NCBI GenBank assembly: GCA_021234155.1
Contig: JAJEKV010000035.1
Span: 3,486,224-3,550,223, forward strand
Source of the DNA: Isoetes taiwanensis
Taxonomy: Eukaryota > Streptophyta > Lycopodiopsida > Isoetales > Isoetaceae
Reading direction: 5' to 3'
DNA: 64,000 nt
Positions 43,358 to 49,104 of this stretch are shown here, piece by piece. The first letter of the stretch is position 1, and the number at the start of each line of letters is the position of its first letter. The notes under the pieces are model-generated. The model was not told the origin of the DNA, ran no database searches, and saw only the letters and a list, made by a program, of their open reading frames with translations. Made by a program: the position numbers and the translations under genes.

Positions 43358-43484
43358 CTCGCCCCTCTTTGCACCTCCCAGCAGCTATAAGCATCTTCAT
43401 ACGGACATGGCCACGTAAGTTTCCAACCCGTACCGTTTTATTTTTGCGTTTCTTTTAATGTCTTAAATGTTCTCTTGTCTTTGG

Positions 43485-43621
43485 TCATAATAATAATAAT
43501 AATAATAATAATAATAATAATAATAATAATAATAATAATAATAATAATAATAATAATAATAATAATAATAATAATAATAATAATAATAATAATAATAATA
43601 ATAATAATAATAATAATAATA
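43485..43621. repeat. (TAA)n microsatellite, the 3' tail of the LINE
   Basis: About 137 bp of uninterrupted TAA (ATT on the minus strand), immediately downstream of the LINE coding region on the minus strand. Non-LTR elements can end in short tandem repeats instead of poly(A). The poly-isoleucine ORFs here are artefacts. Confidence 0.9.
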
Positions 43622-43705
43622 TATTTATCACGCCCACAATGGACCTCAAGGGTCATGGAGCGACACGTACAATTACTGAGTTTTCAAAAGGAACTCTCTG
43701 TGTGA

Positions 43706-46264: not shown

Positions 46265-46945
46265 TTTATTCCTTGAAGTATCCGCAGACCTTCTTGCAAG
46301 TTCGATCTCATGGATCTCGGGGATAGATTGTCAAAAGTGATGGTCTGTTGCTCACAGGTTCGAGCATTAAAGTCCCCAACCAAGATTACTTCCCCTGAGT
46401 CTTTGTACATCAAAATGTCTTTGTTGAGATCATGAAACGGATTCTGGGGATCTATATCATGCCCACTATACACTTTCATATGTAAAGGAGCAAAATAACA
46501 GGCTGCAAGAGGTATTACCTTGCTTTGCTGCGTGATCTTCAGCCAAATGTATTGGTTGAACTTATGATTTGATGCTGTTTTTACCACATGTTCAAAACCT
46601 TTTCTCAAATATACTGCAATGCCTCCAAAGCCTCTGCCACCGCCAATCTCTTTCTCATTCCAGACATGGTTTAACAGTGCAAATTCGTTCAGACATGGAA
46701 GTGGGCGGCTTTGATGCTCTCAAGTTTCTGCGAAGATCAGCAAGTCAAAATTCTGCCACATCTCAAACACAGCATCCATTTTTGCCTGCATTAATCCGTG
46801 AACGTTCCAGTACATAGCCCTTAAGGTCCGAAGACCCTATGTTTTCTTCCTTCTGGTAATGATGGCCTTACCGTTCATGTCAAGATATGCGATGAAACCA
46901 TCATATCTTGCTACTTTGACCTTTGCCCATTCCTGTCTTCTTTGC

Positions 46946-47358
46946 AATATAAATTTATACCGAGGCTGAACTCTATTGGTATAAATTTATACCGCTATGG
47001 GTATAAATTTATACCGAGGAGGTCTCTCGGTATAAATTTATACCGTGTCAGTTCTCTACGGTATAAATTTATACCGAGGAGGTGGTCTCTCGGTATAAAT
47101 TTATACCGCGAGAGTGCTCTTGCGGTATAAATTCATACCGACAAAGTGCTAAGCGGTATAAATTTATATCGCCCGTGTTCACATGTATAAATTTATACTG
47201 ACGAGCAATGGCGGTATAAGTTTATACCGCTTAGGACCTTGTCGGTATAAATTTATACCCCGGGAGAACTCTTGCGGTATAAATTTATACAGAGAGACCA
47301 TCTCCTCGGTATAAATTTATACCGCGGTAAACTAACTCACACGGTATAAATTTATACC
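46946..47358. repeat. Intron array of 14 GGTATAAATTTATACC palindromes at about 31-bp spacing
   Basis: Copies start at 46946, 46978, 47000, 47029, 47060, 47092, 47123, 47154, 47184, 47213, 47244, 47276, 47308 and 47343. Nine are perfect 16-bp palindromes; the others have one or two changes. Steps are 29-35 bp except one of 22 bp, close to three (or two) helical turns. The DNA between copies is not conserved in sequence, apart from some similar gaggaggt-ctct text, so the array looks selected for the sites and their spacing rather than being a simple satellite. It lies in the proposed first intron of the ParB-like gene, next to the LINE insertion point. Confidence 0.92.
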
Positions 47359-49104
47359 GTCAGAACGCCGCCTCGAAAATCTATATAAAATCATACAGTT
47401 TCCAAGACTTTAGTGTATTTAGGTGTTAAAGCAACGAAAAAAGTGTAAAATAACACCACATAAAGGTTCCCTAAGACAACATTTTTAGTACTTAATTACG
47501 GAAAAAAAATAGAGGTAAACACAGTTTCCATGACGTGTAAGCTTGTTTTTTATGTGTTTTCAGCCCAAATATTTCCTTTAAAGGCAAAGGTCAACAGTCA
47601 GCTCCGAAGCCCCAATCCTACGAGCTCAGGGATGTTACATGGTACGTCCACAGGGGAGCTAGAGAACGCTACCCTACGGATGCGTATTTGTATGTATTCA
47701 ACAAGCCAGGAAGGGGAAAGTTCAAGGCTGAGGACTATTATCCTGCCGGAGAAATGACACGTCTGACGGCCACAGAAAACGAGGACGAGATCTTAATGAA
47801 CTGCGTCAACAATGAAGGCAATGTCGAGTGCTTTCTGAGCAGTAGAATGTTCAGGATAAGCATGTGTAAGCCAAAGGATGTCAATGAATATGTTTCGGAA
47901 AATATCAAACTTGGCTATGTGAGTGTGAACCTCTCCCTTCTGTCTTTTATTCCTTTAACGTATAAATTTATACAGGCAGCAAACTAACTGAGCATCCTGA
48001 ATGCAGGATATAGTAGACATACCAGTCATTCTGTGTGACGAGAAAGTCATTGTCAAGGGCCTCTGGTACCCACGGGCAAAGGAAGAAGTGGAAAAAGATA
48101 TTGAGGCAGAAGAGGAGGAGGAGGAAGAAGAGGAGGTGGTAGTCACAGGGAAGGGGAAGAGGAAAGCTTTGGTCATTCACACACAGGCACCAAAGAAATC
48201 TAGGAAGACCAAGGTCTTGTCAATAGAAGAGTCTGCAGAAGCACTTCAAAAGGCACCTTGGGCCGACATTGTTTTGAGACCCTCGGACATGTCAAGCGCA
48301 ATACTTAAAAGAGTAAATGAAACAAAGCTCTTGAAGCAAACAATTTCCTTAACTCTGAGCACAATCAAGAGGCTGCCAAAAAATGAGGATGGGTCAGAGT
48401 GCTTCAAGTGAGGAAGTATGCAGCACATGTGGCAATATTAAAGCAGAGAATGCGCAGAAATCCACATGCCCATGTGTCGCCGCTGGTTGTTATGGTTGAT
48501 CGAGAGCAGGTCCAGGAGCTTAGGCATTACAGGAAGGCCGAGTTTGAGGATTACACATATTATGTTCTCGGTGAAACACACAGTTACAAGGCCAGGAAGG
48601 AGCTATCTAAGGAGGAAAGCAGAAACGAGGTCTGGAAGAGCGTGGAGGCCCATTTTTACGTTGGGTTGACAGACGAGGAGGCCAAAGTCATTGCTGTGAG
48701 CCACAACCTGGACAATAACTTTAGGTTCAAGATGAGCCTCATAGACAAAATCCGCTTCATGCACAGAGAATATAGTATCTCTGATTTGATTATTTCCTAA
48801 CATAATCAACGAACTACTTGTCAACATCATTTACTTTAAATAGATTGTTTTGGGATTCACCCTTTTGCATTCTTTCATTTGATGCATAAAAATTTATTTC
48901 ATATAACCATCTTTTAATGTCAAGTGGATAAATAAGGCTGCAGTTGGGGAACTTGATAGCGTTTCATTTTAAATTTCAGGTTGATGGAAGAAATCAAGCA
49001 AAATGTGACCGACAAAAAGATAGGGATCACCTATAAGGATTTGTATAAATCTAAGGAGAAGGTCGATGGCATTGAGATGCAGAGGATGTGGGGGTGAGAA
49101 AGTG

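What the first reader, a model, noticed from the sequence alone, without database searches (positions are those of the whole stretch)
43407..49095. A ParB-like-domain gene beside and around arrays of 16-bp palindromes: a possible parS-like system in a plant transposon
Seen: a protein region with G-E-T-H...A, then L-T-D-E-E-A, then H-N-L, encoded next to at least 21 copies of GGTATAAATTTATACC. Known: bacterial ParB binds 16-bp palindromic parS sites and spreads on DNA. Inference: this element may encode a protein that loads onto its own palindromes, for partitioning, transposition-complex assembly or autoregulation. The ParB match is by motif order only, and palindromes with a TATAAA core could instead be promoter elements. 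I know of no description of such a pair in a land plant.
Basis: partly seen in the sequence, partly recalled or inferred. Interest (0 to 1): 0.88.

Follow-up and report, generated by a model that had tools for sequence, protein, structure and literature searches.

The report
Quillwort transposon encoding ParB-like DNA methylase
An abundant jumping gene of what is probably the quillwort Isoetes carries, besides its presumed transposase, a gene for a bacterial-style ParB-like DNA-methylating protein, and three families of the element each stud their non-coding DNA with a palindrome of their own, which suggests that these elements recognise and may chemically mark their own DNA.

Summary
The palindromes are real: 22 copies at up to 2 mismatches, 0.02 expected. 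The gene is real too, but this copy is a truncated relic of an abundant DNA transposon whose most telling part lies outside the window. Other copies in the same genome (assembly statistics match Isoetes taiwanensis) show an 8-9 kb element with terminal inverted repeats and 4-bp target duplications (21 of 22). It has a DUF7869 gene (presumed transposase) and, divergent from it, a gene joining a ParB/sulfiredoxin-like domain to a CcrM-like N6/N4 DNA methyltransferase. Palindromes lie in the shared promoter, introns and 3' end (0 of 25 in methylase exons of one copy), are better conserved than spacers, and are kept by 4 of 4 short elements examined. Two diverged families carry their own dyads. 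The protein is under purifying selection (dN/dS 0.035). The ParB assignment rests on profile hits (best E 4.8e-6). Best reading: self-recognition, in which an element protein binds family-specific palindromes and the methylase marks or de-silences the element. Binding and methylation are untested; partition is unsupported.

The parts
39440..48772 (.). Truncated copy of the transposon (family A): left end to the point where similarity to other copies stops; a LINE is inserted inside it
   Evidence: blastn against L035-L040 covers window 39436/39440-43475 and 46948-48772; left terminal repeat at 39440; no right repeat in the window
39440..39469 (+). Left terminal inverted repeat, starting AACAAAGTTTAAA
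   Evidence: in other copies the repeat pairs with the right end and is flanked by 4-bp duplications
39841..42984 (-). Gene with DUF7869 (presumed transposase), in several frames: spliced and/or decayed
   Evidence: Stop-to-stop frames; PF25273 E 7.3e-44
40919..41356 (-). DUF7869 domain match
   Evidence: Residues 60-205 of the frame 40697-41533
42997..43200 (.). Palindrome cluster 1 (7 copies), between the two divergent genes
43407..43414 (+). Proposed first coding exon of the ParB-methylase gene (ATGGCCAC before GTAAGT)
   Evidence: ATGGCCACGTAAG at 43407, exact in 2 of 5 other copies looked at and in the majority sequence of 29 copies; phase fits the next exon; inferred, no transcript seen
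43487..46850 (-). LINE insertion in the proposed first intron, with an (ATA)45 tail; right border approximate. Not part of the transposon
   Evidence: RVT_1 E 1.1e-31; tandem repeat 43487-43621
46946..47358 (.). Palindrome cluster 2 (14 copies), in the proposed first intron
   Evidence: palindrome columns better conserved than spacers across 29 copies
47564..47918 (+). Proposed exon 2 (N-terminal domain without a Pfam match)
   Evidence: Open frame, splice signals and similarity to other copies
47959..47974 (.). Single palindrome in the proposed second intron
   Evidence: a match at up to 3 mismatches in the corresponding place in L035-L040
48007..48772 (+). Proposed exon 3, frame broken in this copy; holds the ParB-like domain
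48399..48772 (+). ParB/sulfiredoxin-like domain (GETHSYKA here; GGTHSYKA in relatives)
   Evidence: 150 scored matches in the genome, 84-94% identity apart from the window itself; ParB profile hits on relatives
49113..52300 (+). Second LINE near the broken end of the copy; approximate borders. Not part of the transposon
   Evidence: RVT_1 E 1.3e-13 in 50308-51645

Best explanation
The feature is part of a two-gene cut-and-paste DNA transposon. One gene (DUF7869) is the presumed transposase. The other encodes a ParB/sulfiredoxin-like domain followed by a beta-class amino-DNA-methyltransferase (probably N6-adenine). The palindromes are family-specific binding sites for an element-encoded dimer, most likely the ParB-methylase protein itself. 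Bound in arrays in the shared promoter and introns, it delivers the methylase to the element's own DNA. This keeps the element expressed against host silencing and/or marks the DNA for the transposase. SHOWN: element ends, domains, co-location, conservation of the palindromes, different dyads in three families, purifying selection on the protein. INFERRED: gene models, that this protein (rather than the transposase) binds the palindromes, the kind of methylation, and the anti-silencing or marking outcome.
For: Ends: 652 forward and 654 reverse exact terminal-motif matches, control 0; 4-bp duplications in 21 of 22 paired ends, against 2 of 462 mismatched pairings. Methylase: PF01555 E 1.6e-13, 1.9e-15 and 1e-19 in families A, B, C; PDB profile best hit CcrM E 1e-11; motif IV IADIPYGF found in copies of all three families, motif I DAFSG(S/T)GTT. 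ParB: PHROG 1033 E 4.8e-6 (B), 0.001 (A). Divergent pairing: of 150 listed DUF7869 hits, 20 have a listed ParB hit within 12 kb, 20 of 20 divergent; 22 have a listed methylase hit, 20 divergent; shifted controls gave 3 pairs in 10 list-shifts. Palindromes: 0 of 25 in proposed methylase-gene exons of L038; column identity 0.82 against 0.64 for spacers; kept in 4 of 4 short elements examined. Families B and C have their own dyads at matching places, the C dyad 3720 times in the genome, control 0. dN/dS 0.035 for the family A ParB exon.
Against: No binding, methylation or expression data. No DNA-binding domain was recognised in the ParB-methylase protein; the transposase or a host factor could be the binder. 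PF02195 (ParBc) was not hit at E up to 1 in any piece scanned, and one of two C sequences had no ParB hit. PDB profile hits to sulfiredoxin are not significant (E 1.1-2.5) and rank below unrelated chains. Within family A, paired symmetric changes are only weakly favoured (23 of 50 at the outer pair, p 0.04). Motif IV is DIPY, in some A copies DIPH, not the textbook DPPY (the latter recalled).
Confidence: 0.45

Rival explanations
1. The DUF7869 transposase binds the palindromes, as TnpA of Spm binds its repeated motif (recalled), for transposition complex assembly or autoregulation; the methylase acts elsewhere.
For: Short elements keep ends plus palindromes, the expected set of transposase targets. 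The DUF7869 gene is divergent from the array and the ParB-methylase gene in families A and B, and listed hit pairs point the same way.
Against: In L041-L043 the palindromes are internal, not in the shared terminal 360-396 or 79-80 bp. In L038 they continue into introns and 3' end of the methylase gene and none lies left of position 4336, in the transposase half.
Confidence: 0.25
2. The palindromes are promoter or enhancer sites for a host transcription factor.
For: They sit between the divergent starts and in early introns.
Against: Family-specific changes of the whole dyad would need several host factors; short elements that share no coding sequence with L038 by blastn keep arrays.
Confidence: 0.18
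3. Neutral tandem repeats that expanded by slippage or unequal crossing-over.
For: Partly tandem: 105-bp and 32-bp units; motif arrays of other transposons grow by tandem duplication (PMC5735166, passages).
Against: Dyad columns are better conserved than spacers, p 1e-26, though copies are related; families A and B keep dyads at matching places while blastn aligns none of the non-coding DNA between them except the ends.
Confidence: 0.05
4. A ParABS-like partition system.
For: ParB-like domain and 16-bp palindromes.
Against: An integrated nuclear element; no HTH or C-terminal dimer domain recognised in the pieces scanned; the domain is fused to a methylase as in phages (PMC12704722, section 7). 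ParA was not searched for.
Confidence: 0.02

Closest known systems
ParB-fold - N6_N4 methyltransferase fusions of phages and prophages (PMC12704722; passages, section 7)
   Same: Same two domains in one protein, on mobile elements; role unknown there too (anti-defence or host interaction suggested).
   Different: Here in a plant DNA transposon, with proposed introns, an extra N-terminal domain and family-specific palindrome arrays; the main text of that paper holds neither 'plant' nor 'transpos'.
VANC anti-silencing systems of VANDAL (Mutator-like) elements in Arabidopsis (PMC5735166; passages)
   Same: Element-encoded protein; short motifs in dense arrays upstream of genes and in introns, differing between related families.
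   Different: The VANC21 motif is 9 bases and not palindromic; no ParB or methyltransferase domain is mentioned in the passages seen. Binding and loss of methylation were shown there, not here.
Bacterial ParB-parS (recalled)
   Same: ParB-like domain; about 16-bp palindromes.
   Different: No HTH or C-terminal domain recognised, ParA not searched for; many copies in arrays; methylase fusion.
Bdelloid N4CMT (PMC8885841; passages)
   Same: Bacterial-type permuted PF01555 methyltransferase in a eukaryote, linked to transposons.
   Different: A host gene fused to a chromodomain, involved in silencing transposons; here the transposon owns the gene. That paper says its enzyme has no eukaryotic homologues.
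Beta-class methyltransferases CcrM, M.MboIIA, M.RsrI
   Same: Motif IV before motif I; profile hits E 1e-11 to 7e-9.
   Different: Motif IV IADIPYG; ParB-like fusion.

Membership tests
Cut-and-paste DNA transposon | Terminal inverted repeats and a fixed-length target duplication | tested here: met
   AACAARGTTTAAAATG...; 4-bp duplication in 21 of 22 paired ends, family A only
Cut-and-paste DNA transposon | DDE/D transposase | tested here: inconclusive
   DUF7869 (PF25273) matched at E 7e-44, but no solved relative; the catalytic residues are not established
CACTA/EnSpm or Kolobok superfamily | CACTA/G ends with 3-bp duplication, or TTAA target (recalled definitions) | tested here: not met
   AACAA ends, varied 4-bp duplications
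Beta-class amino-DNA-methyltransferase (PF01555) | Catalytic motif IV before AdoMet motif I, PF01555 match | tested here: met
   E 1.6e-13 / 1.9e-15 / 1e-19; motif order seen in L038 and alignment A3
Beta-class amino-DNA-methyltransferase (PF01555) | Activity on adenine or cytosine | not testable with these tools
   No modification data held
ParB/Srx-fold domain | Profile match to ParB-like families | tested here: met
   phrog_1033 E 4.8e-6 (B) and 0.001 (A); weaker: phrog_723 0.019 (A and one of two C sequences), TIGR03764 0.0072 (the C sequence among three proteins). PF02195 not hit; fold not predicted
Canonical ParB of ParABS | HTH parS-binding and C-terminal dimer domains | tested here: inconclusive
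   No such domain at E up to 1 in Pfam scans of the exons, but these scans also missed the ParB-like domain with PF02195
Canonical ParB of ParABS | ParA partner | not tested
   No ParA search was run; no frame listed for L035-L040 was recognised as ParA by eye
Canonical ParB of ParABS | Specific binding and spreading from palindromes | not testable with these tools
   Needs EMSA/DAP-seq and CTPase assays
VANC-type anti-silencing system | Family-specific motif arrays in non-coding parts of the element | tested here: met
   0 of 25 in methylase-gene exons of L038; different dyads in A, B, C
VANC-type anti-silencing system | Homology to VANC | not tested
   No VANC sequence was compared
VANC-type anti-silencing system | Loss of DNA methylation on target copies | not testable with these tools
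   No methylome held

The most novel reading that the evidence does not exclude
A plant transposon writes its own epigenetic mark: a nucleotide-switched ParB-like clamp loads at family-specific palindromes, spreads and deposits N6-methyladenine (or N4-methylcytosine) along the element. This would give it a private mark in a lineage that lost the AMT1-6mA pathway (PMC12695648, passages), with recognition site and protein co-diversifying so that families do not cross-activate.
Probability: 0.25. Interest if true: 0.95.

Novelty: new variant of a known kind. Interest (0 to 1): 0.8.

Why it matters
Plants silence transposons with 5-methylcytosine, and element-encoded counter-systems are known from few cases (recalled). 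This one would use a bacterial or phage-type module (ParB-like plus amino-methyltransferase) in a land plant, in high copy number, with three natural protein-and-palindrome sets in one genome. It makes two open questions directly testable: can a eukaryotic transposon methylate itself, and how do transposon families evolve private recognition sites? The I. taiwanensis assembly was made partly from nanopore reads (PMC8566536, passage), so the mark could be looked for in existing data if the raw signal is available.

Tried and rejected
Rejected: two separate palindrome arrays around the gene (they are one region split by a LINE). Rejected: partition. Rejected as evidence: PDB hits of the window fragment (designed toroids, DHFR-TS) and of the profile. 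No source found: no relative of the ParB piece in viral contigs or bacterial and archaeal genomes at tblastn E 1e-3, and in phages only two records at E 1; plasmids were not searched. With a 591-aa joined query 264 phage records matched; in the 30 listed the match lies in the methylase part (query 327 onwards), identity 20.6-25.5%.

Weak or mixed: helical phasing. Several arrays are spaced 20-21, 31-32 or 41-42 bp (R 0.83-0.98 for period 10.5), but the family A array after the ParB exon is spaced 28 bp and that of family B 112 and 100 bp, out of phase, and two short elements give only R 0.56 and 0.62. All 65 spacings give R 0.62; 25 distinct lengths give R 0.41, p 0.016; arrays are related by duplication. 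Within-family symmetric covariation is weak; the 17 of 72 is inflated by the variable outer pair. The family B pair is too alike for dN/dS (dN 0.012, dS 0 over 69 codons). The DUF7869 profile got no PDB match of note.

Full report
Observation. The window holds 22 copies of GGTATAAATTTATACC at up to 2 mismatches, 9 of them exact; shuffles give 0.02. They form clusters at 42997-43200 (7) and 46946-47358 (14), plus one at 47959. Between the clusters lies a LINE (RVT_1 E 1.1e-31) with an (ATA)45 tail. Left of the clusters a minus-strand gene carries DUF7869 (PF25273, E 7.3e-44). So the palindromes lie between two divergent genes and in the first proposed intron of the right-hand one.

Host. The window lies in G000: 1,658,258,908 bases, 1110 contigs. 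The published Isoetes taiwanensis assembly is 1658.30 Mb, 204 scaffolds plus 909 unplaced contigs (PMC8566536, passages). I infer that species.

The element elsewhere. The ParB-like piece has 150 scored matches (84-94% identity apart from the window itself) among 2540 first-look candidates. Six stretches of 9.9 kb were fetched (L035-L040; 20 had been asked for). In four of the six (L036, L038, L039, L040) the right-hand gene continues past the ParB-like exon; L035 and L037 lose similarity before the methylase exons. The further exons encode an N6/N4 DNA methyltransferase: PF01555 E 1.6e-13 for L039. A profile of three families finds CcrM at E 1e-11, then M.MboIIA and M.RsrI. Motif IV reads IADIPYGF in copies of all three families, IADIPHGF in some A copies. 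In the window the similarity ends at 48772, and neither methylase exons nor the right end were found.

Ends. The terminal motif occurs exactly 652 times forward and 654 times reverse, control 0. From the places listed in that call I chose 22 facing pairs: 18 by flanks, four short ones whole. 21 of 22 have a perfect 4-bp duplication next to AACAA...TTGTT; 2 of 462 mismatched pairings share a 4-mer. Of the 18, 13 are 8.3-9.5 kb long, four 4.8-6 kb and one 16 kb (distances). L041-L043 are 2.2 kb and L044 3.5 kb. These four share with L038 358-396 aligned positions at the left end, 79-91 at the right end, and palindromes (12, 10, 11 and 8 at up to 3 mismatches); little else aligns. That they are non-autonomous is inferred from this; their frames were not examined.

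Gene and palindromes together. Of the 30 best ParB-like loci (window included), all 30 have at least 5 palindromes within about 1.5 kb; 25 of 30 have 3 or more upstream, 28 of 30 have one or more downstream. In L038, 0 of 25 palindromes lie in the proposed exons of the methylase gene. Across 29 copies, palindrome columns are 0.82 identical and other array columns 0.64 (176 and 246 columns, Mann-Whitney p 1e-26; copies are not independent). The palindrome occurs exactly 7218 times in the genome, control 0.

DUF7869 and methylase together. Among the 150 listed DUF7869 hits (of 9903 candidates), 20 have a listed ParB hit within 12 kb, all 20 divergent. 22 have a listed N6_N4_Mtase hit (150 of 1443 candidates), 20 of them divergent. 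Shifting positions gave 3 pairs in 10 list-shifts. Only top hits are listed, so these are lower bounds.

Other families. Family B (L081/L093 and L082/L094) has about 68-72% DNA identity to family A in coding parts; blastn aligns no non-coding DNA except the ends. It has the same divergent pair, and dyads such as GGTATAAATTTATACC, GGTATGAATTCATACC and TGTATGAATTCATACT between the two genes and after the ParB exon; several copies there are imperfect dyads, such as GGTATGAATTTATACC. The exact GGTATGAATTCATACC occurs 13 times in the genome. Family C (L095-L106, the 12 best methylase hits) has related methylase exons; the ParB-like exon is in view in L095 and L099. Its dyad is GTATTCCGGAATAC, often as AAGTGTATTCCGGAATACACTT, mostly spaced 41-42 bp. 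8 of 12 loci hold exact 14-mers; 11 of 12 hold at least one match at up to 3 mismatches, L096 none. L106 has TGTATTCGAATACA instead. The 14-mer occurs 3720 times, control 0. At C23, a methylase hit at 65562 has clusters at 66795-66934 and 69337-69502, the layout of family A. Terminal repeats and the promoter of family C were not examined. All three dyads share GTAT...ATAC outer parts.

ParB-like domain. Family B matches phrog_1033 'ParB-like partition protein' at E 4.8e-6, family A at 0.001. Weaker hits on the same stretch are phrog_723 (0.019 for A and for one of two C sequences), phrog_6392 (0.35), TIGR03764 (0.0072, the one C sequence tested) and DUF6551 (0.005-0.016 for A, B and one of two C sequences). 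PF02195 was not hit at E up to 1. The PDB profile lists six sulfiredoxin sequences among nine rows, at E 1.1-2.5, below unrelated rows. The loop GGTHSYKA resembles the GGCHR loop of sulfiredoxin (recalled).

Selection. In 28 of 29 non-window copies (one dropped for frame) the ParB exon has dN 0.038, dS 1.07, ratio 0.035; the other two frames give 1.6 and 2.7. Codon-position differences are 0.073, 0.027 and 0.33; 3 of 28 have a stop. In family C the motif I exon has mean dN 0.043 and dS 1.21 in 12 loci, pairs with undefined dS left out. The family B pair is too alike to tell. The protein was therefore maintained by selection while the families spread.

How it may work. The arrangement (an element protein, private motif arrays in promoter and introns, motifs that change between families) matches the VANC systems of Arabidopsis, where binding and loss of DNA methylation were shown (PMC5735166, passages). 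Here the candidate protein carries a ParB-like domain and an amino-methyltransferase, a fusion known from phages (PMC12704722, section 7). I think it most likely that this protein recognises the palindromes as a dimer and acts on the element's own DNA. The retention of arrays in short elements fits a benefit in cis when the protein is supplied by full copies. The main rival is binding by the transposase.

Novelty. In full-text searches of the held library no listed title or abstract start describes such an element; the lists were capped (for example 15 of 867, 15 of 170), and DUF7869 gave 0 papers. Iyer et al. 2016 on eukaryotic adenine methylases is not held and may mention related genes, so priority is not established.

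Noticed in passing
L041-L044 (G000 C64, C116, C223, C112): Short elements (2.2-3.5 kb) with the same ends and 8-12 palindromes; L041 and L042 are 91% alike, L043 about 73% to L041.
   Followed up: partly
window 42619-42984 (-) and L035, L038, L086, L093: The N-terminus of the DUF7869 protein has repeated RRLPPPMxFTP-like motifs, in looser form also in family B; function unknown.
   Followed up: no
window 47564-47918; reverse complement of L038, 5330-5681: N-terminal exon of the ParB-methylase gene (SYELRDVTWYVHRGAR...), reminiscent of a BAH domain by eye only; no Pfam match.
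   Followed up: partly
L106: A family C locus carries TGTATTCGAATACA twice, a dyad two base pairs shorter at the centre, so half-site spacing may vary between subfamilies.
   Followed up: no
window 47047-47336: The array forms a long imperfect inverted repeat (arms of 145 nt, 83% complementary, no gap), a possible source of hairpin RNA.
   Followed up: no
window 57060-57812 (-): Serine hydroxymethyltransferase match (PF00464, E 3.4e-106), an ordinary host gene.
   Followed up: no
G000 whole genome: DUF7869 has 9903 first-look candidates against 2540 for the family A ParB piece and 1443 for N6_N4_Mtase: either many DUF7869 elements lack the methylase gene or the first looks differ in sensitivity.
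   Followed up: no
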